Shown here: piece after piece, positions 10,201-58,691 of the stretch
Position numbering within the stretch: position 1 is the first letter of the stretch
Layout: each line of letters opens with the position of its first letter
NCBI GenBank assembly: GCA_024685285.1
Contig: JAIKVZ010000035.1
Span: 1-64,000, forward strand
Direction: 5' to 3'
DNA from: Bacteroidales bacterium
GTDB taxonomy: Bacteria > Bacteroidota > Bacteroidia > Bacteroidales > P3
DNA: 64,000 nt
Notes under the pieces: generated by a model
The model's database searches: none
The model's input: only the letters and a program-made list of their open reading frames with translations
What the model was told of the DNA's origin: nothing
Position numbers and translations under genes: made by a program

Positions 10201-10283
10201 GGGTTAGGTTCGGGTTAAGGTCGGGTAGGGGTCGGTAAGCCATCGGCACCACCAGCATTCCGTCCCGCCGCTCCCCGAACAAA
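10201..10283 (+). repeat. Dispersed intergenic repeat, copy 1
   Basis: Core 10201-10240 begins GGGTTAGGTTCGGG-TTAAGGTCGGGT and continues AGGGGTCGG; the distal element CCGAACAAA is at 10275-10283. It lies downstream of the Exb terminator and upstream of the next promoter. The inner GTCGG/TTCGG and distal CCGAAC parts are potentially complementary. Confidence 0.8.
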
Positions 10284-10364
10284 CCCTATTGAAAGCACAA
10301 TGGTTGTTCATAAAAAAGACTAAAATTGTGCCTCACAATATCGTGGCAATCCAATTATTTTTCG

Positions 10365-10372
10365 TAAATTTG
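10365..10372 (+). promoter_or_regulatory. Candidate -7 element of the acyltransferase gene
   Basis: TAAATTTG matches TAnnTTTG and is followed by CAAATGC. It is 71 bp before the ATG at 10443. No convincing -33 TTG is seen. Confidence 0.5.
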
Positions 10373-10442
10373 CAAATGCACGTATAGCGCACCATTGTTG
10401 TGTGCTAAGGTGTAATATGTTGATTGTCAAGAAGTACGTTGT

Positions 10443-11006
10443 ATGAAGAGAATATGGATTGCGATAGTCAAACTGTTTGGATGGCACCTTGAGATACCCG
10501 ATATGGCGGCCCGTCCCGAGTTGCAGCACTGCGTCATCGCGGTGGCTCCGCACACCTGCGTTGAAGACTACCTTTGCGGTGTGGCGCTGCTGTGGGCCAT
10601 GAAACTCAACGTACGTATCTTCATCAAGAAAGAGTTTTTCGTTCCGGTCATAGGCCGTCTGCTGAAGCGTTTCGGTGCAGTGCCTGTCGACCGTGGCAAC
10701 CGTCACAACGGTTTGGTGGCCTCGGCAGTCGAAGCCCTCGGCTCAACCGAGCGGCTCACCATCGTCATCACCCCCGAAGGTACTCGTAAACCAGTACGCC
10801 GCTGGAAGCGTGGTTTCTATGAAATTGCAGTCAAGGCCAATGTGCCAATAGTTGCCGGCTATGTGGACTTCCGTACCAAAACTCTCAGTGTGGGTCCCAC
10901 GTTCATACCCACAGGCGATTTCGAGGCGGACCTGCCGCAAATCATGAAACTGTACGAAAATGTAACGCCAAAATATCCCGAAAAGTATAATAAAACAGTT
11001 AAATAA
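10443..11006 (+). CDS. PlsC-like acyltransferase (1-acylglycerol-3-phosphate acyltransferase family)
   Basis: Putative phospholipid acyltransferase of 187 residues, shorter than classical PlsC (about 240). The HX4D catalytic motif appears as HTCVED near residues 38-43, the acceptor-binding region as KKEFFVPVIGRLLKRFGAVPVDRG (residues 61-84, split by a glycine), and the third motif as ITPEGTRKPVRRWKRGF near residue 110. There is only a weak N-terminal hydrophobic stretch (IWIAIVKLFGW), so membrane association is probably peripheral. The exact acyl acceptor cannot be deduced; ornithine-lipid or lysophospholipid acyltransferases are alternatives. It is 12 bp upstream of purL, probably in the same transcript, without an obvious functional link. 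Confidence 0.85.
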   Translation: MKRIWIAIVKLFGWHLEIPDMAARPELQHCVIAVAPHTCVEDYLCGVALLWAMKLNVRIFIKKEFFVPVIGRLLKRFGAVPVDRGNRHNGLVASAVEALGSTERLTIVITPEGTRKPVRRWKRGFYEIAVKANVPIVAGYVDFRTKTLSVGPTFIPTGDFEADLPQIMKLYENVTPKYPEKYNKTVK

Positions 11007-11018
11007 TCGTAAAACATT

Positions 11019-14000
11019 ATGGTAAGACGAATTTTTGTCGAAAAGAAGGCGCCCTACGCAGTGCGCGCCAAAGAGCTCAAAACCGAGATGAGTGAATACC
11101 TCGGCATCGATGCCGAAGAGGTGCGAGTGCTGGTGCGCTATGATGTCGAGAATGTCACCGACGCCACTTTCAAGCAGGCTCTGACCACAGTCTTCAGCGA
11201 GCCACCGGTCGACGATGTGTATGAAGAGCAGTTTCCCCATAACGACACCGATTTCTGCTTCACTGTAGAATACCTCCCCGGCCAGTTCGACCAGCGTGCC
11301 GACAGCGCAGAGCAGTGCGTCAAACTACTGTGCGATAGCGAGGAACCAATCATCAAGAGTGCAACTACATATGTAATCGGTGGCCGCCTCAGCGAGGAAC
11401 AGCGTCAGTCTGTGGTGAAGCACTGTGTCAACCCTGTCGACAGCCGTGTCACCGACGAGCCCAAGCCTGCTACCCTCGAGGACCATTTTGACGAACCTGC
11501 CGACGTCATAACTTTCTGCGGTTTCAAGGATATGGCCGAACCGCAGCTGCATGAGCTTTACGACGGCCTTGGTCTTGCCATGACATTTGCCGACTTTAAG
11601 CACATTCAGTGCTACTTCCATGACGAAGAGCACCGCGACCCCACCATGACTGAAATACGTGTGCTCGATACCTATTGGAGCGACCATTGCCGACACACCA
11701 CTTTCGCCACCGAACTGAAGGATGTGCACTTCGACGATGGTTACTACCGTCCGCTCATTGAGGGCGCTTTCAAGCAATATCTTGCCGATCATAAGGAGCA
11801 TTATGCCGGTCGCACCGACAAGTTCGTATGTCTGATGGACATCGGCACGCTGGCAGCCAAACGTTTGAAAAAGGCTGGCATTCTCGACGACCAGGAGCCC
11901 AGCGATGAAATCAACGCCTGCTCTATTGTGGTACCTATTGTCATCGATGGCAACCGAGAGGAGTGGCTTATCAACTTCAAGAACGAGACGCACAACCACC
12001 CAACCGAGATTGAGCCCTTTGGCGGTGCTGCAACCTGCCTTGGCGGTTGTATACGTGACCCGCTTAGTGGTCGTACTTACGTCTACCAGGCCATGCGTGT
12101 TACCGGTGCTGCCGACCCCACCAAGCCTCTCAAGGAGACCTTGCCTGGCAAGTTGCCGCAGCGCAAAATCGTTACCACTGCCGCCCGAGGCTACAGCTCA
12201 TACGGCAACCAGATAGGGCTTGCAACAGGCTTGGTCAACGAGATTTACCATCCAAATTATGTTGCCAAGCGTATGGAGATAGGTGCCGTAATAGCTGCTG
12301 CCCCACGCCGTGCTGTGAAGCGTCTTACCAGCGACCCTGGCGATGTAATTATCTTGCTCGGCGGTCGTACTGGTCGCGACGGCATTGGTGGCGCAACAGG
12401 TGCTTCGAAGAGCCATACCACCAAGAGCTTGACCACATGCGGTGCCGAGGTTCAGAAAGGTAATGCCCCTACTGAGCGCAAGATCCAGCGCCTGTTTCGT
12501 CGCGAGGAGGTTTCCAGCATTATTAAGAAGTGCAACGACTTCGGCGCAGGCGGTGTCAGCGTGGCTATTGGCGAGCTGGCGGACGGCTTGCAAATTAACC
12601 TCGACCGCGTGCCAAAGAAATACGCTGGACTCGACGGTACAGAGCTTGCCATCAGCGAGAGTCAGGAACGTATGGCCGTGGTCGTTGACCCCAAGGATGT
12701 CGACCTCATGCTGAAATATGCCGATGAAGAGAATCTCGAGGCCACTGTTGTTGCCACCGTTACAAAAGAGCCCCGTATGGTCATCAACTGGCGTGGCAAG
12801 GAGATTGTTAACCTCAGCCGCCGTTTCATAGACACCAACGGTGCCCACCAGGAAACCACGGTGAGTGTTAGCATGCCCTCTCAGAATATTCAGAGCAATC
12901 AGAATGCTCAGAATAATTTGAAAACACTGTGGCTTAGTACCCTCGCCGACCTCAATGTCTGTTCCCAGAAGGGTTTGGTTGAGATGTTTGACAGTTCCAT
13001 CGGTGCCGGTAGTGTGGTGATGCCGTTTGGTGGCAAGTACCAACTCACGCCCACACAGAGCATGATTGGCAAACTGCCGTTGCTCGACGGCAAGTGCGAC
13101 ACCGTCACCATCATGGCCTATGGCATGGATCCCTACCAGACTTCGTGGAGCCCCTTCCATGGTGCCGTTTATGCTGTGCTGAGTTCGGTGGCCAAGATTG
13201 CCGCCGCAGGTGGCGACGCAAGCCGTGTGCGCCTCACATTTCAAGAGTATTTCAAGAAACTTGGCAACAACCCATACCGCTGGGGCGAACCCTTTGCCGC
13301 TCTGCTTGGTGCCTACAACGCCCAGATGGGCCTCAGACTGCCTGCCATCGGCGGCAAGGACTCTATGTCTGGCACATTCAACGACATCGACGTGCCGCCG
13401 ACGCTCTGCTCCTTCGCAGTGGGCATCAGCGATCTCCAGCATGTCGTCACCCCTGAGTTGAAGCAGGCCGGTAACAAGTTGGTGCTGCTCGATGTGAAGG
13501 AGAAAGAGTTCGGCATGCCCGATTATGAGGATGCCATCAACCAGTACGCCGCCTTGCGGAAAGCCATCGAAGCTGGGCAGGTCCGCAGCGCATACGCACT
13601 TGGTTTCGGTGGCATAGTCGAGGCCATCAGCAAGATGGCATTCGGCAACAAGCTGGGTGTGAAACTAAATGTAGCTAAATACCTAACTGCCAAGCATTAT
13701 GGTTGGATTGTAGTTGAAACCAATCCCTCAAACGACCTGCCTTTCCGTAATACCATCCTCGGCGAGGTTACTGAGGAACCCGTCTTTGAGGTGTGTGGCG
13801 AAAAGATTACTCTTGAGGAGGCTCTTACCGCCTGGCAGAAGCCCCTCGAGGGCGTCTTCCCCACCCGCTCCGCTGAAGTGGAGAGTGCAAAGTGCAAAGT
13901 GGAAAGCGCCATCTACAAGGCTGCGCAACCACTCACACATTCACGCATTAACACGTTAACGCATTCTGCCAAGCCACGTGTCTTCATCCCTGCTTTCCCA

Positions 14001-14768
14001 GGCACCAACTGCGAGTACGACAGTGCCCGTGCCTTCAATCGTGCTGGTGCCGAGAGTGAGATAATCGTCTTCCGCAACCAGAACGGCCAGCAGATACGCG
14101 AGAGTGTTGAAGCATATGTCCGTGCCATCAACAACAGCCAGATAGTGATGTTACCGGGTGGCTTCAGTGCCGGTGATGAGCCGGAAGGTAGTGCCAAGTT
14201 TATTACCAGTGTCTTCCGCAATCCGCGCATTGCCGATGCTGTAATGGAACTGCTCAACAAACGTGACGGACTCATGCTGGGTATCTGCAACGGTTTCCAG
14301 GCATTGGTTAAACTCGGCCTCGTACCTTATGGTGAAATCCGTCCGCAGACCGAAGATTCACCAACACTGACATTCAATACTATCGGTCGCCACCAGAGCA
14401 AGATGTCCTACACGCGTGTAGCCTCTAACCTCAGTCCTTGGCTTCAGCGAGCCGTACTTGGTGCCACATACGTTATTCCCATATCGCACGGCGAGGGACG
14501 CTTCGTGGCTCCGCAGGAATGGCTCGACCGCCTCTTCAAGAATGGTCAGGTGGCCACCCAGTACTGCGACCTCAATGGCGTGCCGACTATGGACGAGGAA
14601 TACAACATGAACGGCTCCTATTGTGCTATCGAAGGCATCACTAGTTCCGACGGCCGAGTCCTTGGCAAGATGGGTCACTCGGAGCGACGAAGCAAAGGCA
14701 GTGCCATGAATATCTTTGGCAACGACGACCAACAAATCTTTGAATCAGGCGTGGAGTATTTCAAGTAA
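11019..14768 (+). CDS. purL: Phosphoribosylformylglycinamidine synthase, single-chain PurL/PurQ type
   Basis: Fourth step of purine synthesis: converts FGAR to FGAM with glutamine and ATP. The 1249-residue chain fuses a PurS-like N-terminus, the PurL synthetase and a C-terminal glutaminase. ATP-site blocks include NHPTEIEPFGGAATCLGGCIRD (near residue 327, one of the metal/nucleotide loops), GGRTGRDGIGGATGASKSHT near 448 and FGAGGVSVAIGELADG near 508. The glutaminase has GTNCEYDSA near 994, nucleophile Cys in LGICNGFQAL near 1090 and the SHGEGRF site near 1157. Between the two halves (about residues 952-986) the linker is encoded by simple-sequence DNA (GAGAGTGCAAAGTGCAAAGT and an ACATTCACGCATT-like stretch) that resembles intergenic repeats elsewhere in the window; the reading frame is intact. 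Confidence 0.97.
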   Translation: MVRRIFVEKKAPYAVRAKELKTEMSEYLGIDAEEVRVLVRYDVENVTDATFKQALTTVFSEPPVDDVYEEQFPHNDTDFCFTVEYLPGQFDQRADSAEQCVKLLCDSEEPIIKSATTYVIGGRLSEEQRQSVVKHCVNPVDSRVTDEPKPATLEDHFDEPADVITFCGFKDMAEPQLHELYDGLGLAMTFADFKHIQCYFHDEEHRDPTMTEIRVLDTYWSDHCRHTTFATELKDVHFDDGYYRPLIEGAFKQYLADHKEHYAGRTDKFVCLMDIGTLAAKRLKKAGILDDQEPSDEINACSIVVPIVIDGNREEWLINFKNETHNHPTEIEPFGGAATCLGGCIRDPLSGRTYVYQAMRVTGAADPTKPLKETLPGKLPQRKIVTTAARGYSSYGNQIGLATGLVNEIYHPNYVAKRMEIGAVIAAAPRRAVKRLTSDPGDVIILLGGRTGRDGIGGATGASKSHTTKSLTTCGAEVQKGNAPTERKIQRLFRREEVSSIIKKCNDFGAGGVSVAIGELADGLQINLDRVPKKYAGLDGTELAISESQERMAVVVDPKDVDLMLKYADEENLEATVVATVTKEPRMVINWRGKEIVNLSRRFIDTNGAHQETTVSVSMPSQNIQSNQNAQNNLKTLWLSTLADLNVCSQKGLVEMFDSSIGAGSVVMPFGGKYQLTPTQSMIGKLPLLDGKCDTVTIMAYGMDPYQTSWSPFHGAVYAVLSSVAKIAAAGGDASRVRLTFQEYFKKLGNNPYRWGEPFAALLGAYNAQMGLRLPAIGGKDSMSGTFNDIDVPPTLCSFAVGISDLQHVVTPELKQAGNKLVLLDVKEKEFGMPDYEDAINQYAALRKAIEAGQVRSAYALGFGGIVEAISKMAFGNKLGVKLNVAKYLTAKHYGWIVVETNPSNDLPFRNTILGEVTEEPVFEVCGEKITLEEALTAWQKPLEGVFPTRSAEVESAKCKVESAIYKAAQPLTHSRINTLTHSAKPRVFIPAFPGTNCEYDSARAFNRAGAESEIIVFRNQNGQQIRESVEAYVRAINNSQIVMLPGGFSAGDEPEGSAKFITSVFRNPRIADAVMELLNKRDGLMLGICNGFQALVKLGLVPYGEIRPQTEDSPTLTFNTIGRHQSKMSYTRVASNLSPWLQRAVLGATYVIPISHGEGRFVAPQEWLDRLFKNGQVATQYCDLNGVPTMDEEYNMNGSYCAIEGITSSDGRVLGKMGHSERRSKGSAMNIFGNDDQQIFESGVEYFK
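13878..13967. repeat. Intergenic-type simple repeats inside purL
   Basis: Bases 13878-13912 read GTGGAGAGTGCAAAGTGC and related units; 13930-13967 read as ACTCACACATTCACGC, ATTAACACGTTAACGC and ATTC. The second block resembles the reverse complement of 57719-57750. It encodes the low-complexity purL linker. Confidence 0.6.
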
Positions 14769-14769
14769 T

Positions 14770-15102
14770 ATGGTGATAGATTTCAATAAGATAGACGAAG
14801 TAGCCAACTCGCGGTTCAAGGGTGGGAATGGAGACACAATGTTCCGTACGTTCAACGATGGGAAGAACAAGATTATGCGTGGACGGCTCGATCCAGGCTG
14901 CTCCATAGGCTACCACAGCCACGAGACCAATAGTGAGATTATCTTCGTCATCAGTGGTGAGGCTCGCTGTATGTACGACGAAGGTGAGGAGTGCCTTACA
15001 CAAGGCCAGTGCCATTATTGCCCCCAAGGCCACTCACACGCCCTCATTAACGCCAGTAATACTGAGCCGCTTGTTTTCTTTGCCATAGTCCCGGAGCAAT
15101 GA
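14770..15102 (+). CDS. Cupin domain protein
   Basis: Small single-domain cupin of 110 residues starting MVIDFNKIDEVANSRFKGG. The two cupin motifs are visible: GCSIGYHSHETNSEIIFVISGEARC (residues about 43-67, metal-type ligands His-49, His-51 and Glu-55) and CPQGHSHALIN near 85-95. The ATG is one base after the purL stop and is preferred to an in-frame start 54 bp inside purL. The substrate cannot be predicted; cupins include isomerases, dioxygenases and binding proteins. The gene overlaps the following NUDIX gene by 4 bp (ATGA), so translation is probably coupled from purL onwards. Confidence 0.88.
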   Translation: MVIDFNKIDEVANSRFKGGNGDTMFRTFNDGKNKIMRGRLDPGCSIGYHSHETNSEIIFVISGEARCMYDEGEECLTQGQCHYCPQGHSHALINASNTEPLVFFAIVPEQ

Positions 15103-15509
15103 CTATGAAGAATATTGAGGTTGTTGCAGCAATAATCAGCGATGCCGAAGGACGTCTTTTGGCCACCCAGCGCGGTTATGGCGAGTGGAAGGACTGGTGG
15201 GAGTTCCCAGGCGGTAAGGTTGAGAATGGCGAGACTCATGAGGTGGCTTTGCGGCGCGAGATATTGGAAGAACTTGCGGCGCACATTGTTATCGAGAGGC
15301 TATTGCAGACGGTGGAGTGGGACTACCCGAAGTTTCATCTCACCATGCATTGCTACCTCTGCCGTATGGAGAATAACGACTTAATCCTGAAGGAACATGA
15401 GGATGCCAAATGGCTTGGCAAGAACGAACTTGACAGCGTATGTTGGCTGCCCGCCGACAGGCAATTGATAGACATATTAAAACAATCAAGCATCAATACA
15501 CTCAGATGA
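15099..15509 (+). CDS. NUDIX hydrolase, MutT-like (deoxy)nucleoside triphosphate pyrophosphohydrolase
   Basis: Hydrolyses nucleoside diphosphates linked to another moiety, probably removing damaged dNTPs or CTP-related nucleotides as in the MutT/NudG group. The NUDIX box is complete near residues 38-60: GGKVENGETHEVALRREILEEL, with the REILEEL metal-binding glutamates. WWEFPGGK before the box is typical of MutT-type enzymes. Two start codons are possible at 15099 and 15105 (MTMKN). It overlaps the cupin gene upstream and the TSCPD gene downstream by ATGA. Oxidised-nucleotide clean-up after purL is an attractive but unproven link. Confidence 0.9.
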   Translation: MTMKNIEVVAAIISDAEGRLLATQRGYGEWKDWWEFPGGKVENGETHEVALRREILEELAAHIVIERLLQTVEWDYPKFHLTMHCYLCRMENNDLILKEHEDAKWLGKNELDSVCWLPADRQLIDILKQSSINTLR

Positions 15510-15763
15510 AACACATTCAGTATCAAACGCAAGGTACATGCTCCGTGCTAATAGATGCTTCGGCCGACGAGAATGACGTCATCCAGCAAGTCTTCTTTTT
15601 AGGTGGCTGCAACGGCAATCTGCAAGGTATATGTAGATTGGTGAAAGACCAAAAAATTGACGACGTGATAAACAAGTTGTATGGCATACGTTGTGGCGAC
15701 AAGCCCACTTCGTGCCCCGACCAACTCTGTCGCGCATTGGAGCAGCTGAAGCAGAAACAATAA
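15506..15763 (+). CDS. TSCPD domain protein
   Basis: Small 85-residue protein of the TIGR03905-type family named for its TSCPD motif, seen here as KPTSCPDQLCRALEQ near residues 67-81. This domain also occurs at the C-terminus of some ribonucleotide reductases and vitamin-B12-dependent enzymes; the stand-alone protein has no established activity. Three cysteines (CSV, GGCNG, GIC/RCG region) and the TSCPD cysteine could bind metal. It starts inside the stop region of the NUDIX gene (ATGA overlap), which fixes the start; longer in-frame starts lie within that gene. Confidence 0.85.
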   Translation: MKHIQYQTQGTCSVLIDASADENDVIQQVFFLGGCNGNLQGICRLVKDQKIDDVINKLYGIRCGDKPTSCPDQLCRALEQLKQKQ

Positions 15764-15773
15764 TGTTATTAAA

Positions 15774-16742: not shown

Positions 16743-16768
16743 CGAGAAACAATCAAAGCAATAACAAT

Positions 16769-17104: not shown

Positions 17105-17121
17105 TAATTAGATTTTTTTAG

Positions 17122-17129: not shown

Positions 17130-17159
17130 CACCCACGAAATCAATAAAACTACATAACA

Positions 17160-18617: not shown

Positions 18618-18625
18618 AATGAATG

Positions 18626-20740: not shown

Positions 20741-21820
20741 ATGCTCGGATATGTTGCCAGAAGACTGCTCTACGGACTCCTCGTCGTTTTTGGCGTGGTG
20801 ACGCTGGTCTTTTTTCTGTTCAACATACTGCCCGGCGACCCGGCCCGCATGATGTTGGGACAGCGTGCCGACGCCGAGAGCATTGCCATGATTAACCGCG
20901 ACTTGGGTCGCGACCGCCCTGTGGCGGTGCAGTATGTGGCCTACCTCAACGACTTGGCACCGGTGTCGCTGCACAACAATGCCGACCCCGAGCACTATTT
21001 CTACCTTTCCGATGAGAAATACGCCCCATACGCAACCCTTTTTACCATAGGCAACACCACCGTGGTGGCCAAACAACCCTATCTGCGCCGCTCATACCAA
21101 AGCAAACGCAAAGTGAGCGAGGTGATTGCCGCAGCCTTCCCACAAACCGCCATGCTGGCCGTGGTGGCTATGGCTTTTGCACTCATAGTGGGCATATTGC
21201 TCGGCGTGCTCTCGGCGCTGCACAAAGACTCGTGGATTGACCGCCTGGCGTTGGTGCTCTCCACGCTTGGTATGTCGCTGCCGTCTTTTTTTGCCGCCAT
21301 ACTCATCGCGTGGCTTTTTGCCTACGTGTTGGCCGACTTCACCCACCTCAATATGTTCGGCAACCTCTACACGGTTGACGACTACGGCACGGGCGAGTAT
21401 ATTGACCTCAAGAACCTGATACTGCCCGCCTTCACCCTCGGCATACGTCCGCTGGCCACCCTCACACAGCTCACCAAGAACTCGATGCTCGAGGTGCTCT
21501 CGCAAGACCACATTCGCACAGCTCGCGCCAAAGGCCTCAAGTGGCGCCGCGTGGTGCTGCACCATGCCTTGCGCGGTGCCATGAACCCCGTGGTGACCTC
21601 AGCCTCGGGCTGGTTGGCAAGCCTGCTGGCCGGTGCAGTGTTTGTAGAGTATGTCTTTGACTGGAAGGGTATGGGCATCGTGATAGTCGACGGGCTGGAA
21701 AAGTACGATTTTCCGGTTGTGATGGGGGCCATACTTTTTGTGTGCCTACTGATAGTGGTGATCAATATCGTCACCGACATACTTTACGCAGTGTTAGACC
21801 CCAGAGTAAGAGTACGTTAG
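20741..21820 (+). CDS. ABC transporter permease, DppB/OppB type
   Basis: Inner-membrane subunit of a peptide/nickel-type ABC importer, 359 residues. The N-terminus MLGYVARRLLYGLLVVFGVVTLVFFLF is the typical first helix of this family and is followed by LPGDPARMMLGQ. The EAA-type loop that contacts the ATPase is IRTARAKGLKWRRVVLHHALRGAMNPVV near residues 258-285. About six hydrophobic segments are seen. The periplasmic segment between TM1 and TM2 (about residues 45-120) is longer than in proteobacterial DppB. No second permease, ATPase or binding protein is adjacent, so its partners must be encoded elsewhere. Confidence 0.93.
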   Translation: MLGYVARRLLYGLLVVFGVVTLVFFLFNILPGDPARMMLGQRADAESIAMINRDLGRDRPVAVQYVAYLNDLAPVSLHNNADPEHYFYLSDEKYAPYATLFTIGNTTVVAKQPYLRRSYQSKRKVSEVIAAAFPQTAMLAVVAMAFALIVGILLGVLSALHKDSWIDRLALVLSTLGMSLPSFFAAILIAWLFAYVLADFTHLNMFGNLYTVDDYGTGEYIDLKNLILPAFTLGIRPLATLTQLTKNSMLEVLSQDHIRTARAKGLKWRRVVLHHALRGAMNPVVTSASGWLASLLAGAVFVEYVFDWKGMGIVIVDGLEKYDFPVVMGAILFVCLLIVVINIVTDILYAVLDPRVRVR

Positions 21821-21847
21821 AGGTGCTGTGGTCGGGCCGAATATGCC

Positions 21848-21920
21848 TTTTGTTCGGAAATTTTGTGCCGACCGCCGAACCTTACCCGATGTTGACCCGA
21901 CCTTAACCCGAACCTAACCT
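21848..21920 (-). repeat. Dispersed intergenic repeat, copy 2
   Basis: Read on the minus strand the core runs from 21920 to 21875: AGGTTAGGTTCGGG-TTAAGGTCGGGTCAAC-ATCGGGTAAGGTTCGG, followed by the distal element CCGAACAAAA at 21857-21848. It is downstream of the ABC permease gene. Confidence 0.85.
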
Positions 21921-21982
21921 ATTTAAGGTGCTGAAATCCAGTATGTTATATCGTATTTATTTAAAGTGGTGAAAATCAGTAC
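21921..21982 (+). repeat. Imperfect 24-bp direct repeat pair
   Basis: ATTTAAGGTGCTGAAATCCA (start 21921) and ATTTAAAGTGGTGAAAATCA (start 21959), each extended by GTA, are alike at about 20 of 24 positions and spaced 38 bp apart. The first abuts repeat copy 2. Possible regulatory sites upstream of aguB. Confidence 0.5.
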
Positions 21983-32725: not shown

Positions 32726-32757
32726 AGCGCGGAACCATCGGTTCCGCGCTCGCTTTA
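32726..32757 (+). terminator. Terminator of pgk
   Basis: Perfect 11-bp stem AGCGCGGAACC (32726-32736) with GGTTCCGCGCT (32740-32750), loop ATC, followed by the modest T stretch CGCTTTA. Confidence 0.8.
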
Positions 32758-32786
32758 TAACGCCCACAACAGCAGCCATATAGGGG

Positions 32787-32860
32787 TTTTGTTCGGTCGC
32801 CGTCGTCCTAAGAGCGAACCAACCCCGACCTCAACCCGACCTTAACCCGAACCTAACCCA
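32787..32860 (-). repeat. Dispersed intergenic repeat, copy 3
   Basis: On the minus strand from 32860: TGGGTTAGGTTCGGG-TTAAGGTCGGGTTGAG-GTCGGGGTTGGTTCG, then the distal CCGAACAAAA at 32796-32787. It lies downstream of the pgk terminator. Confidence 0.85.
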
Positions 32861-32990
32861 TCTATCAACTTGATATAAAACGGTTTATGATTCATGAAAC
32901 GTCAATGCGCCATAAGCTCTTCAATATCAGACTGATTTCGCATGAGAACCTACTGCTTCGCAGACAGGTGTTTGTCTGCATAAAACGATT

Positions 32991-42924: not shown

Positions 42925-42967
42925 CTAAAACCGCAACGTATTGATTTTGAACACGTTGCGGTTTTAG
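42925..42967 (+). terminator. Terminator after the PepSY-like gene
   Basis: 15-bp perfect stem CTAAAACCGCAACGT (42925-42939) with ACGTTGCGGTTTTAG (42953-42967), 13-nt loop. T-rich on the descending arm in both directions, so it may also serve the convergent gene. Confidence 0.8.
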
Positions 42968-42998
42968 CTTTAACATCCTGAACAACAGTGCGTTAGAT

Positions 42999-43073
42999 GG
43001 GTTAGGTTCGGGTTAAGGTCGGGTCAACATCGGGTAGGGTTCGGGGTTCCACGCCCGGGGTTGGTACAAAACC
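42999..43073 (+). repeat. Dispersed intergenic repeat, copy 4
   Basis: Core from 42999: GGGTTAGGTTCGGG-TTAAGGTCGGGTCAAC-ATCGGGTAGGGTTCGGGG. The distal part is diverged (GGTACAAAACCC near 43062-43073). It sits between two converging genes, after the terminator and 5 bp before the nuclease stop region. Confidence 0.85.
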
Positions 43074-43078
43074 CGATG

Positions 43079-44029
43079 TTAGTGCCTCAATAGCCTCAAA
43101 ATCAGGGGCAAATGGTCGCTGAAACCGCCGCGGTATTGCCGACCGTAGTAGGTGCGCATGGGTTGCACTCCCAATCGGGTGTTGACCTCGGTGAGCATGA
43201 ACTCAGGCGCGAACACCTCGTAGGCCGCCACTTGCCATACGCTGTCGGCGGGTTGGCTGAGCATCATGTGGTCGATATTGCTCCAGTAGCCGTGGTAGTA
43301 GTAGCTGTTCTGGCTCGGCGGCAGGCGCAAGGTTAGCAGCTCGGTGCCTTCGGCGTTGCGGCTGCCGTCGGCAAAGCCCATGGTCTGGTTCAGCGCCTCC
43401 TCTGAGGCTTCGCAGTTGAGGTCGCCCATGGCCATAATCAGAGCCGACGGATGCCAGCGGCGCAACTCGGCCATAGCCATACGCAGTGCCGATGCCGAAG
43501 CCATGCGCGTCGAGTCGGAGTGGCGGCGCGACGGCCAGTGGTTGAGCAGCAGCACAAGGGTGTCGCCCGTTGCGGTGCGGCCCGTTGCCACAAAGATATT
43601 GCGGCTGCCGCTGCCCTCGATTGCGTAGCTGGTGTCTGGCTCGAAACGGCCGGTGCGGTAAATCAGGGCGCAGGCAATGCCGCGGCGGTCGCTTGAGGGG
43701 CTGAGCAGGTAGGCGTAGCCCGCGTGGCGCAACGGGGTGCCGAGACAGAGCTCGCGCAGGGGTTCCTCGCCCTCTACTTCGGCCAGCCCTACCAGGTCGG
43801 GGCAGTCCATGGCGGCAATAACCTTGTAAATGCTGTCGCGTTTGGCGAGCATTTTGTAGCGGTTCCAATGGTAGGAGCCCTCGGGTGTGAAATCGTTGTC
43901 GGCTTTGTGGGGGTCGTCGGTGGGGTCGCAGTAGTTCTCGACATTCCACCATGCCACGGAGAGCTCCTGGGCAGGGGCCTGCAGTGCGACCACGACGGCG
44001 GCTGTCAGTATGAGCAGGGCGGTCCTCAT
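43079..44029 (-). CDS. Endonuclease/exonuclease/phosphatase family protein, exported
   Basis: 316-residue protein with signal peptide MRTALLILTAAVVVALQAPAQ. The EEP-fold active site is complete: Asn in WWNVENYCDP near 28-37, Glu in LVGLAEVEGEE near 80, LLNHWPSRRHSDSTR near 168 (catalytic His), MGDLNCEAS near 206 (Asp-Asn) and GGFSDHLPLIL near 304 (Asp-His). Substrate could be DNA, RNA or a phosphodiester; secretion argues for a scavenging nuclease or phosphatase. The ATG at 44029 overlaps the stop of the DUF1232 gene by 4 bp and is preferred to a longer frame that would run through that gene. Confidence 0.92.
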   Translation of the reverse strand: MRTALLILTAAVVVALQAPAQELSVAWWNVENYCDPTDDPHKADNDFTPEGSYHWNRYKMLAKRDSIYKVIAAMDCPDLVGLAEVEGEEPLRELCLGTPLRHAGYAYLLSPSSDRRGIACALIYRTGRFEPDTSYAIEGSGSRNIFVATGRTATGDTLVLLLNHWPSRRHSDSTRMASASALRMAMAELRRWHPSALIMAMGDLNCEASEEALNQTMGFADGSRNAEGTELLTLRLPPSQNSYYYHGYWSNIDHMMLSQPADSVWQVAAYEVFAPEFMLTEVNTRLGVQPMRTYYGRQYRGGFSDHLPLILRLLRH

Positions 44030-48001: not shown

Positions 48002-48072
48002 TTTTTGTGTTGAGAATTATTATTGTTTTGCGAGGATTTTTTTTTTGAAAAAAACAGCCAAGTCTCAAAGAG

Positions 48073-48107
48073 GGGTTGGGTTCGGGTTAAGGTCGGGTTG
48101 AGGTCGG
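48073..48107 (+). repeat. Dispersed intergenic repeat, copy 5
   Basis: GGGTTGGGTTCGGG-TTAAGGTCGGGTTGAG-GTCGG. The distal element is not clear; CTCCGAAAAA follows at about 48114. It lies between the alpha-2-macroglobulin terminator and the AT-rich region. Confidence 0.8.
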
Positions 48108-48117
48108 ATCAACTCCG

Positions 48118-48157
48118 AAAAATCCCTGTCGCGACAAGGTCTTCGACAGGGTTTTTA
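48118..48157 (-). terminator. Terminator of the alpha-2-macroglobulin gene
   Basis: CCCTGTCG (48124-48131) and CGACAGGG (48144-48151) form an 8-bp stem with a 12-nt loop, flanked by A-run and T-run, so it works in either direction. It lies 30 bp after the gene's stop. Confidence 0.75.
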
Positions 48158-48186
48158 CAGTTGTTTTAAACAGGTGTGGGCGACTT

Positions 48187-53805: not shown

Positions 53806-53835
53806 GGTTTTGTTTGCTATAGAATATATAATCTG

Positions 53836-53843
53836 CAAAAGTA
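53836..53843 (-). promoter_or_regulatory. Candidate -7 element of the alpha-2-macroglobulin gene
   Basis: TACTTTTG on the minus strand followed by CAG, 31 bp before the ATG at 53805. Confidence 0.55.
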
Positions 53844-53915
53844 CGAAAAAAATGCCACACCGTAATAAAAATATGTATATATGGATTTTCTTTTTTATGT
53901 TTTGTTTTTTTTGTG

Positions 53916-53923
53916 TACCTTTG
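53916..53923 (+). promoter_or_regulatory. Candidate -7 element of the U32 peptidase gene
   Basis: TACCTTTG followed by CAATTTG, 25 bp before the ATG at 53948. Confidence 0.55.
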
Positions 53924-53947
53924 CAATTTGATTTAGAAGAATACATT

Positions 53948-55189
53948 ATGGTTGAAATAATGAGTCCTGTGGGCTCCTACGAGAGTTTGATGGCTGCTAT
54001 TCAAGGCGGTGCCGGTTCTGTATATTTCGGAGTCGGTAAACTCAATATGCGGTCGCGCTCGGCACACAATTTTACCGCTGCCGACCTTCCGCGCATTGTT
54101 GCCACTGCGCGGGCCGCAGGAGTGCGAACGTACCTAACAGTCAATACTGTTGTATATGACCACGAGCTTGACGAGATGCGCGCCCTCGTAGATTTGGCCA
54201 AACGCGAAGGAGTGAGTGCCATTATTGCTTCGGATGTGGCAGTAATGTCTTATGCCCGCTCCATAGATATGGAGGTTCATATCTCAACGCAATGCAATGT
54301 TTCAAACATTGAAGCTGTGGATTGGTGGGCGCAATTTGCCGACGTAGTGGTGCTGGCCCGCGAACTCTCGCTGCAACAGGTGGCAAGGATAAATAATGAG
54401 ATTGTGGAGCGTGATATACGTGGACCACATGGAAATTTGATGCAGATAGAAATGTTTGCCCATGGCGCCCTTTGTATGAGTATCAGCGGCAAATGCTACC
54501 TGAGCCTTGACAATTGCGATTCTTCGGCTAATCGAGGTGCCTGTTTGCAACTTTGCCGCCGTGGCTATATTGTGAAGGACAAGGAAAGCGACCTTGAATT
54601 AGAGATTGACAACGAATATATAATGTCGCCCAAAGACCTCTGCACCATTGGTTTTGTAGACAAAATGATAAACGCCGGGGTGAAAGTGCTCAAGATTGAG
54701 GGGCGTGGCCGTAGCGCAGACTACGTTAGGACTGTAACTGAGTGCTACCGCGAAGCCGTGCAGGCTGTGGCCGACGGCTCATATAGTCCTGAGCGTATCG
54801 CTGAGTGGACACATCGGTTGGCTACGGTATTCAATAGAGGCTTCTGGGACGGCTATTATTTGGGACGACGTTTGGGCGAGTGGAGCAACCGCTACGGCTC
54901 ACAGGCCACCGAGCAAAAAATCTATCTTGGCCGCATAACCAATTATTTTAACCGTATAAGCGTAGCCGAGGCAAAACTCGAGACCGCAGAGCAACTCTTG
55001 ACCGGCGACAAGATAATGGTTACTGGCGAAACAACCGGTGTATACCTTGACACACCAGCAGAGTTGCGTACCGACAGAGGTGCTGTGAGTAGGGTGGACC
55101 AAGGCGAGAAATTCTCGTTTGTCACAACCGAGCCTCTTCATCGCGGCGATAAAGTTTACAAGGTCGTAACTGTAATTGACGAATTCTAA
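53948..55189 (+). CDS. Peptidase U32 family protein (probable RNA hydroxylation factor)
   Basis: 413-residue cytosolic protein starting MVEIMSPVGSYESLMAAIQGGAGSVYFG, the standard start of the U32 family. The signature EMFAHGALCMSISGKCYLSL (near residues 170-190) and the cysteine set in NCDSSANRGACLQLCRRGY near 191-209 are present. Related TrhP (YegQ) and RlhA in E. coli act in 5-hydroxyuridine/5-hydroxycytidine formation in tRNA or 23S rRNA with iron-sulfur help; which applies here is open. True peptidase activity is proposed for some relatives. It precedes radA by 14 bp. Confidence 0.93.
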   Translation: MVEIMSPVGSYESLMAAIQGGAGSVYFGVGKLNMRSRSAHNFTAADLPRIVATARAAGVRTYLTVNTVVYDHELDEMRALVDLAKREGVSAIIASDVAVMSYARSIDMEVHISTQCNVSNIEAVDWWAQFADVVVLARELSLQQVARINNEIVERDIRGPHGNLMQIEMFAHGALCMSISGKCYLSLDNCDSSANRGACLQLCRRGYIVKDKESDLELEIDNEYIMSPKDLCTIGFVDKMINAGVKVLKIEGRGRSADYVRTVTECYREAVQAVADGSYSPERIAEWTHRLATVFNRGFWDGYYLGRRLGEWSNRYGSQATEQKIYLGRITNYFNRISVAEAKLETAEQLLTGDKIMVTGETTGVYLDTPAELRTDRGAVSRVDQGEKFSFVTTEPLHRGDKVYKVVTVIDEF

Positions 55190-55203
55190 CAACAAGAGAC
55201 ACA

Positions 55204-56595
55204 ATGGCTAAACCAAAAACATACTATTCATGCCGCCAGTGCGGATATCAGTCGTCAAGTTGGCTTGGACGCTGCCCTGAGTGCGGCCAGTGGAATACCT
55301 TCGATGAGGAGGTCGTTGCACCCGTGTCGACCGCTGGCAGAAGTCCGAGACATTCCACTGCGCAGGATTCGTTGCCAAAGTTGCTGCACGAGGTTAGCAG
55401 TAGCGAGACACAGCGCATACCCACCCAGTGTGCCGAGTTTGACCGCGTGCTTGGCGGCGGCATTGTGCCTGGCAGCCTATTGCTCATAGGTGGCGAGCCT
55501 GGCATCGGCAAGTCGACTTTGCTGTTGCAGACAGCTTTGCAACTCAAGGATATGAGGGTCCTCTATGTGAGTGGAGAAGAGAGCGAGCAGCAGATAAAAA
55601 TGCGTGCCGATCGCCTGATGGACCCAAGTGCCCCGGAGCCAATGGCCTGCAACTCGTCGCTGTTTGTAGTGAGCGAGACTTCCACGCAACGTATTTTTGA
55701 ACACATTGAAGCCGTAAAGCCAGAGATGTTGATAGTTGATTCTATTCAGACTGTTAGCACCGACAGGGCACAGAGTTCGGCGGGTTCGGTGACGCAAATT
55801 CGTGAGTGTGCCGCCGAATTTCAGCATTATGCCAAAGAGAGCGGTGTGCCTGTGTTGCTGGTAGGCCATATCACCAAGGACGGTACGCTGGCAGGGCCAA
55901 AGGTCATGGAACACATTGTCGATGCAGTACTCCAGTTTGAGGGCGACAAAAATTATGGCTACCGCATACTAAGAGCTCAAAAAAACCGTTTTGGTTCTAC
56001 TGCCGAGATTGGCATATTCGAGATGCTGGAGGGTGGTTTGCGCCAGGTGGCCAATCCGTCGCAGTTTCTGCTCTCGCAGCGCGACAAGACCTTGAGCGGT
56101 GCTGCCGTGGCTGCCACACTCGAAGGAATTAGACCCATGTTTGTCGAGGTGCAATCGTTGGTGTCGAGCGCCGTGTACGGAACCCCTCAACGTAACGCCA
56201 ACGGGTTCGACCTCAGACGCATGAATATGCTCCTGGCAGTGTTGGAGAAACGCTGCGGTTTCAAACTTGGAGCCAAAGACGTTTTTCTCAACATAGCGGG
56301 TGGCATGAAGGTGAGCGACCCTGCAACCCACCTGGCTGTGGCAAGTTCAATACTGAGCAGTAATGTCGATATAGCCATAGACCCCACAGTGTGCTTTGCG
56401 GCCGAGTTAGGTTTGAGCGGCGAATTGCGGCCCGTGCGCAATCCCATGCAGCGCGTGGCCGAGGCCGACCGGCTTGGCTTTGAGCGCATCTTTGTGTCGG
56501 CCTACGATGCACGCTTGCTCAATAAAAAACGCTACCACCTTGAGGTTATAGGTGTTAGCGTTATAGAGGAGGTGTTTCGCAAACTGTTTGCGTAG
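55204..56595 (+). CDS. radA: DNA repair protein RadA
   Basis: RecA-related helicase helping branch migration in recombinational repair, 463 residues. The N-terminal zinc finger CRQCGYQSSSWLGRCPECGQW (residues about 10-30, four cysteines) is complete; Walker A is GEPGIGKSTLLLQTA near 98; the RadA-specific KNRFG appears as AQKNRFGSTAEIG near 259; the C-terminal Lon-like domain has GLSGELRPVRNPMQRV near 403. It probably shares the U32 promoter. Its stop is 7 bp from the stop of the convergent lipoprotein gene. Confidence 0.96.
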   Translation: MAKPKTYYSCRQCGYQSSSWLGRCPECGQWNTFDEEVVAPVSTAGRSPRHSTAQDSLPKLLHEVSSSETQRIPTQCAEFDRVLGGGIVPGSLLLIGGEPGIGKSTLLLQTALQLKDMRVLYVSGEESEQQIKMRADRLMDPSAPEPMACNSSLFVVSETSTQRIFEHIEAVKPEMLIVDSIQTVSTDRAQSSAGSVTQIRECAAEFQHYAKESGVPVLLVGHITKDGTLAGPKVMEHIVDAVLQFEGDKNYGYRILRAQKNRFGSTAEIGIFEMLEGGLRQVANPSQFLLSQRDKTLSGAAVAATLEGIRPMFVEVQSLVSSAVYGTPQRNANGFDLRRMNMLLAVLEKRCGFKLGAKDVFLNIAGGMKVSDPATHLAVASSILSSNVDIAIDPTVCFAAELGLSGELRPVRNPMQRVAEADRLGFERIFVSAYDARLLNKKRYHLEVIGVSVIEEVFRKLFA

Positions 56596-56602
56596 CCCTT
56601 GC

Positions 56603-57091
56603 TTACGGACGCACGGCGCAGATGCGGATGGTGTAGTTGGGAATGTTGAGCATATCGCTTGGCGGATTTCCGTCAAGGTCTTCAATGATAAACTGGATGT
56701 AGCCAGGCTCGAAGATAAAGCGCAGGTTTTCGCCAACAATCTGGTAGTCGGTGCCTATGACAGCGCCTGTGGAATCAAGCACATCGACAGGGCATGACAC
56801 AGGGACGATGAATGGGAGCGGATTTTGGGCACCGTTGGTGTAGATGTAGGCGTGAACTTGGCCGTTGTCTACCACCTCTTCGGTCAGGGCGTTCCACTGC
56901 ACGGTGGCGTAGTAGTAATCGATATAGGGGTTGGGGTTGCCGTTGGCATCGTATACTACTGCGGTGTGAGGGTGCCAGTCGTTTGCCTGGAGCACCACAA
57001 CGTCGGAGAAACTGTTGTAGTCGTCGCGGTCGCACGATGTGGTGAAGGTCAGCGCCATCAAGGCAATCAGTGGGAGGATTAATCGTTTCAT
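56603..57091 (-). CDS. Small lipoprotein of unknown function
   Basis: 162 residues. Lipoprotein signal MKRLILPLIALMALTFTTSCDRDD with Cys near 20. The mature part is predicted mostly beta, ending in a region SDMLNIPNYTIRICAVRP. I do not recognise a family. It has its own -7 element and converges on radA with 7 bp between stops and no separate terminator. Confidence 0.8.
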   Translation of the reverse strand: MKRLILPLIALMALTFTTSCDRDDYNSFSDVVVLQANDWHPHTAVVYDANGNPNPYIDYYYATVQWNALTEEVVDNGQVHAYIYTNGAQNPLPFIVPVSCPVDVLDSTGAVIGTDYQIVGENLRFIFEPGYIQFIIEDLDGNPPSDMLNIPNYTIRICAVRP

Positions 57092-57132
57092 TGTTCTATT
57101 GTTTATTTGTTTGTGTTTCTTAAATTCTGCTG

Positions 57133-57140
57133 CAAAGATA
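57133..57140 (-). promoter_or_regulatory. Candidate -7 element of the small lipoprotein gene
   Basis: TATCTTTG on the minus strand followed by CAGCAG, 42 bp before the ATG at 57091. Confidence 0.6.
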
Positions 57141-57255
57141 CATATTTTTTTTCAGGAAAAACCTTAAAAATGCAAGAAAATTATTTTATGCCGGAACAAT
57201 GCCAGTTGCTATGTGCACATTGTGAATGAGATACGTTCACGGTAGCCAACTTTTT

Positions 57256-57286
57256 TTGCGTGGGTGGATTATTTTGTGTATCTTTG
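57256..57286 (+). promoter_or_regulatory. Promoter of the DRTGG-domain gene
   Basis: TTG at 57256-57258, 20-bp spacer and TATCTTTG at 57279-57286. The gene starts 103 bp later, leaving a leader of about 95 nt that may fold. Confidence 0.65.
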
Positions 57287-57297
57287 CAACTTGAAAG

Positions 57298-57349
57298 AAG
57301 CAGGGCATGGCAGCCGCACCGGGCACCCGATTGGCAGGCAATTCTGCTT
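57298..57349 (+). promoter_or_regulatory. Possible structured leader of the DRTGG-domain transcript
   Basis: AAGCAG (57298-57303) can pair with CTGCTT (57344-57349), enclosing a GC-rich part with CGG-GCAC-CCG. No known riboswitch class was recognised. Ordinary leader sequence is the alternative. Confidence 0.25.
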
Positions 57350-57388
57350 TGAAGAACCGATTTGCAAACTATAACAACGACAATTATT

Positions 57389-57724
57389 ATGAAAGTTAAG
57401 GAACTTGTTGATGCTTTGGGACTTATGGTCCTTTCGGGCGAGAACGGCTTGGATCGCGAGATTGAGGGCTGCTATGTGAGCGACCTGCTTAGCGATGTGA
57501 TGGGCAACGCCGATATGGGCGATGTGTGGGTGACTCTGCAGACCCACAAGAATGTGATGGCCATCGCCTCGCTCAAGGAGCTGGCTTGCGTGGTGCTCGT
57601 CAAAGACCAGCAGGCCGCCCCGGACACGCTCGAGCAGAGCAACGAAGAGGGTATACCATTCCTCAGCACCTCAATGCAGACCTACGAGACCGTGGGCAAG
57701 ATATACCAGCTGTTGAATGCGTGA
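57389..57724 (+). CDS. DRTGG domain protein
   Basis: 111-residue protein with the DRTGG-like domain: MKVKELVDALGLMVLSGENG, then IEGCYVSDLLSDVMGNADMGDVWVTLQ near residues 30-56 and ACVVLVKDQQ near 70. In Clostridia and Bacteroidetes such proteins occur near PHP-domain and NADH/hydrogenase genes, and the next gene here is a PHP protein. No hydrogenase is visible in the window. The last residues LLNA and the stop come from a simple repeat GAATGCGTGAATGTGC, suggesting that the original end has been replaced. Confidence 0.82.
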   Translation: MKVKELVDALGLMVLSGENGLDREIEGCYVSDLLSDVMGNADMGDVWVTLQTHKNVMAIASLKELACVVLVKDQQAAPDTLEQSNEEGIPFLSTSMQTYETVGKIYQLLNA

Positions 57725-57800
57725 ATGTGCAAATGCGTGAATGCGTAAGCGGCTGACGAAATCAACACTAACGCAATAACACATTAACACTATAACACAT
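57714..57800. repeat. Simple-sequence intergenic repeat
   Basis: Units such as GAATGCGTGAATGTGC, AATGCGTGAATGCGTAAG and then AACACTAACGCAATAACAC-ATTAACAC fill the space between the DRTGG and PHP genes. The reverse complement of the first part resembles the second repeat block in purL. Confidence 0.65.
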
Positions 57801-57804
57801 TATT

Positions 57805-58572
57805 ATGGCTCCGTTCAAAGCCGATTTGCACATTCATACGGTGCTCTCGCCGTGCGGCGACCTCGAGATGTCGCCCACGGCCATTGTTGAGCGCGCTATG
57901 GCCCGCGGCCTGGATATGATTGCCATCACCGACCACAACACCACCCGCCAGGTCAAGACAACACAGAAGGTGGGTCGCGACCGCGGCCTCTTCGTGCTTG
58001 GCGGTGTCGAGATCACCTCGCAGGAGGAGGCTCATTGCCTGGCCTATTTCGAGGCCGACGACCAACTCGATGAGTTTCAGCAGTTTTTAGACCAGCATCT
58101 GCCGCCTATACCCAACGACGAGGACCGTTTCGGCTACCAACTCATTGTCGACGAGAACGACGAGATTACCGGCGAGGAGCAGTACCACCTGCTCAACGCC
58201 CTCGACGTGGATATCGACGGGCTTTACGACGAGGTGCACCGCATTGGCGGCCTCTTTGTGCCGGCGCATATCAACAAAGGCACCACGTCGCTCATGAGTC
58301 AATTGGGTTTTGTGCCGCCAGACCTCAAGGCCGACGGGCTCGAAATCAACTTCCGTACCACCAGGGACGAAATCCTGAAGAAGTTCGCATACCTCAAACG
58401 CTTCAACTTCATTACCGACAGCGATGCACATTTTATTGACAATGTGGGCGATGTATACAACGTGTGTTATTTGGAGCACCGCACGTTTGCCGAGTTTGGC
58501 ATGGCACTCCGCGGCGATGAGGGCCGTTATATAGATACCATGTATTTCCGCGACCACAAACTGCCGCGCTAA
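57805..58572 (+). CDS. PHP domain metal-dependent phosphoesterase
   Basis: 255-residue PHP-fold protein. The four PHP motifs are visible: DLHIHTVLSPCGDLEMSP near residues 6-23, AITDHNTTRQVK near 40-51, FVLGGVEITSQEEAHCLAYF near 68-87, PAHINKG near 153 and ITDSDAHFID near 209-218. Metal-binding His and Asp are in place. Members hydrolyse phosphoesters such as nucleotides or histidinol phosphate; this subgroup has no fixed substrate. It follows the DRTGG gene by 80 bp of repeat DNA. Confidence 0.9.
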   Translation: MAPFKADLHIHTVLSPCGDLEMSPTAIVERAMARGLDMIAITDHNTTRQVKTTQKVGRDRGLFVLGGVEITSQEEAHCLAYFEADDQLDEFQQFLDQHLPPIPNDEDRFGYQLIVDENDEITGEEQYHLLNALDVDIDGLYDEVHRIGGLFVPAHINKGTTSLMSQLGFVPPDLKADGLEINFRTTRDEILKKFAYLKRFNFITDSDAHFIDNVGDVYNVCYLEHRTFAEFGMALRGDEGRYIDTMYFRDHKLPR

Positions 58573-58616
58573 TCATTCACTGTACTAAGTTGCTGTAAGT
58601 ATGGCTCTTGTTCGCC

Positions 58617-58691
58617 TTTTGTTCGGTTGGCGTGGAGGGTTGCCCGAACCCTGCCCGATGTCAACCCGACCTTAACCCGAACCTAACCTAT
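58617..58691 (-). repeat. Dispersed intergenic repeat, copy 6
   Basis: On the minus strand from 58690: TAGGTTAGGTTCGGG-TTAAGGTCGGGTTGAC-ATCGGGCAGGGTTCGGG, then the distal CCGAACAAAA at 58626-58617. It lies between the convergent PHP and BtuG-like genes. Confidence 0.85.

What the first reader, a model, noticed from the sequence alone, without database searches (positions are those of the whole stretch)
10201..58691. New family of dispersed intergenic repeats: six copies with core GGGTTAGGTTCGGG-TTAAGGTCGGGT
Seen directly: six sites (10201 +, 21920 -, 32860 -, 42999 +, 48073 +, 58690 -) share a core of about 26 bases that is nearly invariant, followed by a variable YRAS-RTCGGG-YAGGGTTCGG part. 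All six are between transcription units, never in a gene, and usually next to a terminator. The G/T-rich strand with repeated GGGT/GGTT units resembles telomere-like or G-quadruplex-prone DNA. The conservation is greater than for neighbouring intergenic DNA, so selection, gene conversion or recent spread is implied. I know of no named element with this sequence; this is the strongest candidate for undescribed biology in the window.
Basis: seen in the sequence. Interest (0 to 1): 0.85.

Follow-up and report, generated by a model that had tools for sequence, protein, structure and literature searches.

The report
Regularly spaced 11-bp-phased chromosomal repeat
A probable gut Bacteroidales bacterium carries about 200 copies of a near-invariant DNA signal placed roughly every 9,000 bases along the part of its chromosome examined, sometimes even inside genes, and some relatives have similarly spaced signals with other letters but the same 11-base rhythm, which points to an undescribed chromosome-wide marking or folding system.

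Summary
The six copies are real and belong to a genome-wide family: 233 pattern matches in the 2.0 Mb genome, reversed control 0, or about 190-210 distinct copies. (1) Spacing is regular. In 818 kb, 85 copies lie 9.4 kb apart with CV 0.37; random use of convergent and tandem gaps gives 0.87. A congener shows 8.9 kb, CV 0.31. (2) Weaker copies, some inside genes, lie in wide gaps; one is in this window at 3666. Seven in-gene copies align without insertion to homologues, so substitution, not transposition, made them. (3) The unit is 11-bp-phased. Congeners keep period 11 with other unit sequences; 245 kb from five other genera had none. Randomised spacers beside a near-invariant core argue against recent spread. 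Termination, Rho and REP/RAYT fit poorly. Best reading: sites of a chromosome-architecture or topology system with about 9-kb domains (gyrase is one candidate); main rival: a DNA-uptake signal. The protein is unknown, and searches count against a literal gyrase motif. The paper searches made showed no description.

The parts
10170..10308 (+). copy 1 (-31..+107 of the aligned element; core from 10201), tandem gap
10132..10173 (+). intrinsic-terminator-like hairpin plus T run just before copy 1
   Evidence: read from sequence
21813..21951 (-). copy 2 (core 21886-21920), tandem gap
32752..32890 (-). copy 3 (core 32825-32859), tandem gap
42968..43106 (+). copy 4 (core 42999-43033), convergent gap; terminator-like hairpin at about 42930-42966 just before it
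   Evidence: hairpin read from sequence
48042..48180 (+). copy 5 (core 48073-48107), about 540 bp upstream of dnaA, just past the 3' end of its neighbour; 18 of 64 dnaA loci of relatives have an 11-bp array 300-900 bp upstream of dnaA (1.6 expected)
   Evidence: (DnaA)
58582..58720 (-). copy 6 (core 58655-58689), convergent gap
3635..3773 (+). seventh, weaker copy inside the KDO-transferase ORF 3009-4247 (core 3666-3700); same length here as the two closest homologues

Best explanation
Each copy is a double-stranded-DNA recognition or wrapping site of a chromosome-organising system that needs one site about every 9 kb. The site is built from 11-bp modules, so that one face of the helix carries the conserved marks turn after turn. 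In this species it has one strong arm (four direct 11-mers), a loosely conserved middle and a weaker mirrored arm, with a TAACnnnCTGAWWWTCAG-like motif in front. A protein that wraps DNA, most simply DNA gyrase or an unidentified architectural protein, would bind there and set topological domains or loops. Selection keeps the spacing. Sites settle in the least constrained DNA available, and form by substitution inside a gene where no intergenic place lies within reach. SHOWN (in the sequence examined): the sites, their regular spacing, 11-bp phasing, in-gene copies without insertion, absence from the sampled stretches of other genera, species-specific units. INFERRED: that a protein binds, that its role is architecture or topology, the gyrase candidacy, and that selection rather than drive keeps the spacing.
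For: Regular spacing. G000 (window genome, 818 kb): 85 copies, 76 spacings, mean 9383 bp, CV 0.37, against 0.87 +/- 0.09 (minimum 0.64 of 2000) for random use of convergent and tandem gaps. G016: 44 copies in 385 kb, mean 8909, range 4435-14510, CV 0.31, null 0.85 +/- 0.11. G010 + G038: 39 spacings, CV 0.54, uniform null 0.93 +/- 0.13, 0 of 5000 as even. Pairs under 4 kb among all 91 G000 sites: 1; uniform placement expects 36.1. Gap filling: all 6 weak G000 sites lie at least 4.6 kb from a strong one, though only 32% of random positions lie beyond 3.5 kb; 4 of the 6 are in ORFs. Seven in-gene copies align gap-free with homologues (6, 1). Near-invariant core beside random fixed-length spacers. 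Phasing: GC period 11.0 in the left arm, 10.75 in the right; right-arm amplitude 0.106 against 0.034 +/- 0.015 for shuffled columns; phases mirrored within about 0.7 bp about +54, a dyad chosen on the same copies. The published E. coli gyrase motif has two 47-bp arms with 10.75-bp GC periodicity around a 36-bp centre, and gyrase also binds BIME-2 (PMC6379681, passages). No consistent strand rule in tandem gaps: C-rich strand sense 14, antisense 10 in G000; 4 and 12 in G016; 8 and 16 in G098, G010 and G038.
Against: In 76 distinct 11-mer units of relatives, A/T bases are not clustered on one side of the turn (z -0.94), so sequence-directed bending is not the shared property. In G016 (36 of 44 copies aligned) the layout differs: array in the middle, flanking motifs outside, best GC period of the array stretch 10.25 (0.145; 0.129 at 11). 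The two arms of G000 pair within a copy hardly better than between copies (0.446 against 0.428 +/- 0.007). GyrA is ordinary: 6 PF03989 matches in all 12 family genomes tested, 5 and 6 in two others. No candidate protein stood out among 840 ORFs screened for internal repeats, top 40 looked at. Gene context differs: mostly convergent in G000 and G016, but 17 divergent, 24 tandem, 5 convergent and 2 in ORFs among 48 arrays of G098, G010 and G038, so relief of positive supercoils between convergent genes is not the general rule. In G098 the period-11 excess is small (6 peaks in 171 kb; 2, 2 and 3 at periods 10, 12 and 14).
Confidence: 0.4

Rival explanations
1. DNA-uptake signal (USS/DUS-like): competent cells prefer DNA carrying the motif, and biased recombination accumulates it genome-wide.
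For: Known uptake sequences are over-represented, often inside ORFs (65% and 35% in two species), without orientation bias, described as significantly or relatively evenly spaced (PMC1939737, PMC7811141), with species dialects and inverted pairs (PMC3630211; passages). Copies by substitution in genes fit molecular drive. ComEC is present in G000 and in 12 of 14 genomes.
Against: About 200 copies against 1471-5918 in the cited species; a phased element of about 100 bp rather than about 10-30 bp; several unit families in one genome (G010, G038; sorted by eye), which in G010 do not come closer than 3.35 kb to each other (8 sites, P 0.02, threshold chosen after seeing the data). ComEC does not discriminate: it occurs inside and outside the genus and was not found in G010 (82% complete), which has arrays. 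[quoted passage not shown]
Confidence: 0.25
2. Mobile element (MITE or REPIN type) with transposition immunity giving even spacing.
For: Many dispersed copies; terminal inverted motifs in G016; few pairs closer than 4 kb; in one ORF, G016 78420, the array coincides with at least 16 extra residues against its homologue, and G016 89345 also aligns with gaps.
Against: Seven in-gene copies without insertion; randomised spacers beside a near-invariant core; no Y1 transposase hit in G000, which is 90% complete (other transposases were not searched); period 11 kept while the unit changes.
Confidence: 0.12
3. Recombination or repair signal (Chi-like, possibly bidirectional) or other self-marker that limits DNA degradation.
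For: Regular occurrence, tolerance of genes, no need of one gene context.
Against: Known Chi sites are 5-8 bp and strand-biased (recalled); here the element is long and orientation does not follow GC skew (51 of 85).
Confidence: 0.1
4. Transcription terminator, Rho rut site or mRNA 3'-end element.
For: In G000 30 of 30 convergent gaps of 120-300 bp have a copy and 0 of 47 divergent gaps under 300 bp do, though the element itself lengthens a gap; C-rich strand with CCC every 11 nt; a hairpin or terminator lies just upstream of some copies.
Against: No consistent strand preference in tandem gaps; copies inside ORFs; divergent location in other species; regular spacing.
Confidence: 0.05

Closest known systems
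REP/BIME and RAYT-mobilised REPs
   Same: dispersed, mostly intergenic, partly palindromic, species-specific, often near 3' ends; BIME-2 binds gyrase
   Different: not a short GTAG-headed palindrome (definitions: passages); no Y1 transposase hit in G000; regular 9-kb spacing; 11-bp phasing; in-gene copies without insertion
Strong gyrase sites (Mu SGS) and the E. coli gyrase motif
   Same: in G000 two arms with 10.75-11 bp GC periodicity mirrored about a loose centre, over roughly 130 bp
   Different: near-invariant sequence in G000; layout not kept in G016; units of relatives lack A/T phasing; no binding test
DNA uptake sequences (USS, DUS dialects)
   Same: over-represented, evenly spaced, partly in ORFs, no orientation bias, species dialects
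   Different: several- to tenfold or more fewer copies, much longer, several unit families in one genome, uptake untested
Dispersed architecture or segregation signals (matS, parS, KOPS; recalled)
   Same: chromosome-wide protein sites acting on DNA
   Different: those are short and confined or oriented; this is a long, phased, regularly spaced site throughout the examined 41% of the chromosome

Membership tests
REP/RAYT elements | cognate Y1 (PF01797) RAYT transposase in the genome | tested here: not met
   0 matches in G000; 16 of the 21 genomes searched had one; G000 is 90% complete
REP/RAYT elements | short GTAG-type headed palindrome, seldom in genes | tested here: not met
   element anatomy; in-gene copies
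Strong gyrase site | mirrored 10.75-bp GC-periodic arms around a loose centre | tested here: inconclusive
   met in G000, not kept in G016, no A/T phasing in units of relatives
Strong gyrase site | gyrase binding and cleavage | not testable with these tools
   needs Topo-Seq or a cleavage assay
DNA uptake sequence | one over-represented species-specific motif genome-wide | tested here: inconclusive
   G000 and G016 yes; G010 and G038 carry several unit families
DNA uptake sequence | enhances DNA uptake | not testable with these tools
   needs a transformation assay
MITE | copies are insertions relative to empty sites | tested here: not met
   7 in-gene copies gap-free against homologues (6, 1); but G016 78420 coincides with an insert, G016 89345 aligns with gaps, and intergenic copies could not be tested
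Rfam families | match at gathering score | tested here: not met
   0 matches in the window

The most novel reading that the evidence does not exclude
A chromosome-wide ruler: an unknown, rapidly evolving DNA-binding or wrapping protein reads 11-bp-phased sites that selection keeps about 9 kb apart, rewriting gene sequence where needed. The recognised letters change from species to species while the rhythm and spacing stay.
Probability: 0.3. Interest if true: 0.93.

Novelty: new variant of a known kind. Interest (0 to 1): 0.8.

Why it matters
Regularly spaced sites on a bacterial chromosome would make the question of what sets topological domains or loops directly testable. If it is instead an uptake code, it would be the first such code that I know of in Bacteroidota (recalled, not searched). 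In either case it supplies a marker and candidate self-code for a group known mostly from ruminant and horse gut assemblies, and an example of a motif that changes letters but keeps helical phase.

Tried and rejected
Rfam (0 matches at gathering score) and tRNA (0) on the window. Exact 26-mer in genome contigs: 0 stretches, though records very near the window genome may be left out. Conserved RNA hairpin as the essential part: only a subset of copies has the mirrored left arm; pairing within a copy in the variable part is 0.397 against 0.285 +/- 0.025 for shuffled partners. Rho rut: no consistent strand rule. REP/RAYT. Bendability of units. GyrA change. ComEC as discriminator. A tandem-repeat DNA-binding protein: nothing obvious in the top 40 of 840 ORFs of the fetched G000 and G016 stretches. 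Orthologous junctions G016/G000: 6 adjacent pairs fell within the size filter; read by eye, none shows an element. 3' ends of 131 orthologues: 10 with an element in both, 13 only G016, 17 only G000, 91 neither. ORF calls are naive (codon score, no annotation; thresholds differ), so gap classes are approximate. Three ORF-located G000 sites with 5-6 mismatches (C1 30093, C29 120388, C5 9749) are not in the profile list and were dropped. The autocorrelation over pooled dnaA loci used a poor mixed gene model and showed no lag-11 excess in convergent or tandem gaps. The reversed-pattern control was not empty: 26 matches in G010 and a few elsewhere. Conservation is counted on copies chosen by 3 or fewer core mismatches, which favours the core.
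Full report
WHAT IS THERE. The six reported sites exist, two of them one base from the stated coordinate. In the whole genome (G000, 2,007,956 bases in 61 contigs, 90% complete, 6% contaminated) the 15-mer GGGTTAAGGTCGGGT has 223 matches with at most one mismatch, 105 + and 118 -, and none in the reversed control; the 20-mer GGGTTAGGTTCGGGTTAAGG with at most three mismatches has 233 and none. Some elements match more than once, so the number of distinct elements is about 190-210: 104 matches of the 20-mer in the fetched part are 86 elements, and 85 strong profile sites lie in 41% of the genome. I fetched stretches which with the window make 817,599 bases. A 35-column profile finds 85 strong and 6 weaker sites there; the reversed profile finds 0, and eight column-shuffled profiles find 0 with a top score of 0.1. 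The exact 26-mer was not found in genome contigs. The window's dnaA (Pfam-confirmed) brought 80 named loci; the closest are rumen and gut Bacteroidales MAGs, 'bacterium P3' and Candidatus Colimorpha.

ANATOMY. In 80 aligned copies with at most 3 core mismatches the conserved stretch is far longer than 26 bp. In front stands ATATAACnnnCTGnnnnTCAGnnnnTTAGAT. Then come four 11-mers, GGGTTAGGTTC GGGTTAAGGTC GGGTYRASRTC GGGTAGGGTTC; 24 of the first 26 positions have one base in at least 95% of copies (position 0 is G or A, position 16 is A in 71). After a loose stretch an inverted arm follows with CCG marks at +63-65, +74-77 and +85-88, that is, every 11 bp. GC periodicity is best at 11.0 bp in the left arm and 10.75 bp in the right arm, with phases mirrored about +54; that dyad was itself picked on these copies. 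Bases between conserved blocks (-24 to -22, -10 to -8, +46 to +62) carry at most 0.25 bit at fixed length. A recent burst of copies would not look like this; selection on, or repeated conversion of, the marked positions would.

CONTEXT IN THIS GENOME. With naive ORF calls, 30 of 30 convergent gaps of 120-300 bp hold a copy and 0 of 47 divergent gaps below 300 bp do. That association is partly circular, because the element itself lengthens a gap; 3 of 20 convergent gaps below 120 bp hold one. Over all classes, 49 of 84 copies are intergenic convergent, 24 tandem, 5 divergent and 6 in ORFs. In tandem gaps the C-rich strand is sense in 14 and antisense in 10 (G016: 4 and 12).

REGULAR SPACING. 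The 85 copies at 4 or fewer mismatches give 76 spacings, mean 9383 bp, CV 0.37. Random choice among convergent and tandem gaps gives CV 0.87 +/- 0.09 (minimum 0.64 in 2000 draws), uniform placement 0.93, and convergent gaps themselves 0.77. Among all 91 sites one pair lies within 4 kb where uniform placement expects 36.1. In G016 a 385-kb contig holds 44 copies with mean spacing 8909, extremes 4435 and 14510, CV 0.31, null 0.85 +/- 0.11. The six weaker G000 sites all lie at least 4.6 kb from a strong one, and four are inside ORFs. Adding them shortens the mean spacing to 8.8 kb but leaves CV at 0.37.

COPIES INSIDE GENES. I listed 18 ORF-located candidate sites (6 of G016, 12 of G000) and looked for homologues among fetched sequence. 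Ten had an alignment across the site. Seven were gap-free at the site: two ABC-transporter ATPases (G016 163216 and C29 64957; PF00005), G016 223055, G016 330708, C21 131221, C3 65500, and C1 30093, which I drop because it is not in the profile list. The other three: G016 78420 coincides with at least 16 extra residues, G016 89345 aligns with gaps, and C5 15208 matched only a 24% paralogue with a one-residue gap. C29 161847 lies in a serine-rich stretch and had no alignment. The window's own in-gene copy lies in the KDO transferase at 3666; 11 homologues were aligned with it (of 120 listed): the two closest (65% and 64% identical) have the same length here and the nine others differ by -1 to +5 residues. 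Whether these homologues carry a site of their own at the same place was not tested. In several ORFs the array reads SGQGRVKV-like peptides, with TCAAGG in place of TTAAGG where TTAAGG would put a stop in frame (read from sequence). Sites without an insert arose by substitution, which transposition cannot do.

RELATIVES. The own-type core is common only in G000 and G016 among 59 genomes of the genus searched, own included (223 and 60 matches; two others had one each). A looser 11-bp pattern adds G108, G003, G038 and a few genomes with one to three hits (reversed control mostly 0, but 26 in G010). A unit-blind search shows the general rule: in loci L091-L190, tandem arrays number 70 at period 11, 5 at period 10 and 4 at period 12, with different units; shorter periods were also frequent (7: 135, 8: 29, 9: 40), probably because the threshold is looser there, and some of the G003 and G038 stretches had been chosen for hits. 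Several form inverted pairs, up to near-perfect palindromes. Of 64 dnaA loci with enough upstream sequence, 18 have a period-11 peak 300-900 bp upstream of dnaA (1.6 expected; 0 at periods 10 and 12), which matches the place of the window copy at 48073. In G010 two unit families and in G038 about five (sorted by eye) alternate along the contig, with combined spacing CV 0.54 against 0.93 +/- 0.13. Per 100 kb, six genus members have 3.5-11 period-11 peaks (G098 weakest: 6 peaks against 2, 2 and 3 at periods 10, 12 and 14); five other genera of the family had 0 in 245 kb, three other families 0 in 120 kb, and outgroup dnaA loci 1 in 143 kb. The motif TAACnnnCTGAWWWTCAG with one mismatch is frequent in G016 (82), G000 (50) and G108 (49); the other family genomes have 0-19, with a reversed control of 0-6, so only some stand clearly above background (190 genomes). 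In G098, G010 and G038 the arrays prefer divergent and tandem gaps (17 and 24 of 48; convergent 5, in ORFs 2), in G010 often 80-270 bp before a called start codon. Gene context is therefore not the constant; spacing and period are.

HOW IT PROBABLY WORKS. A signal that is regularly spaced, tolerated in genes, without a consistent strand rule and helically phased most likely acts on double-stranded DNA. I think it marks or anchors roughly 9-kb chromosomal domains through a DNA-wrapping protein. E. coli gyrase has a 130-bp motif with two 47-bp arms of 10.75-bp GC periodicity around a 36-bp centre and also binds BIME-2 (PMC6379681, passages read; PMC12393610, passages). G000 fits this geometry. 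Against a literal gyrase motif: the units of relatives lack A/T phasing, G016 has another layout, and GyrA is ordinary. The strongest rival is an uptake code, since known uptake sequences share even spacing, ORF copies and dialects (PMC1939737, PMC7811141, PMC3630211, passages). Copy number, length and multiple unit families speak against it, and PMC1939737 notes that uptake sequences are less evenly spaced than compaction signals should be, but none of this excludes it.

NOVELTY. Eight paper searches listed nothing that, by title and abstract, describes such an element in this group; I read passages of seven papers. The library lacks most subscription journals and all bioRxiv preprints.

Noticed in passing
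window 48042-48180 and 18 of 64 dnaA loci, e.g. L114, L121, L125, L126, L133, L142, L146, L148, L154: An 11-bp array lies about 300-900 bp upstream of dnaA in the window and in 18 relatives' loci, with differing units.
   Followed up: partly
L129 9486-9580, L133 9312-9400, L161 7220-7330: Near-perfect palindromes of up to about 110 bp built from inverted 11-bp units.
   Followed up: partly
G031:C198:1482-1911: TAACTCGCTGATTTTCAA recurs five times in 430 bp at about 90- and 140-bp steps, like a small satellite.
   Followed up: no
G010 contigs C1 and C5 (L182, L186, L224-L233): Two unrelated 11-bp unit families alternate along the chromosome and in the fetched part do not come closer than 3.35 kb to each other (8 sites, P 0.02 with a threshold chosen afterwards).
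   Followed up: partly
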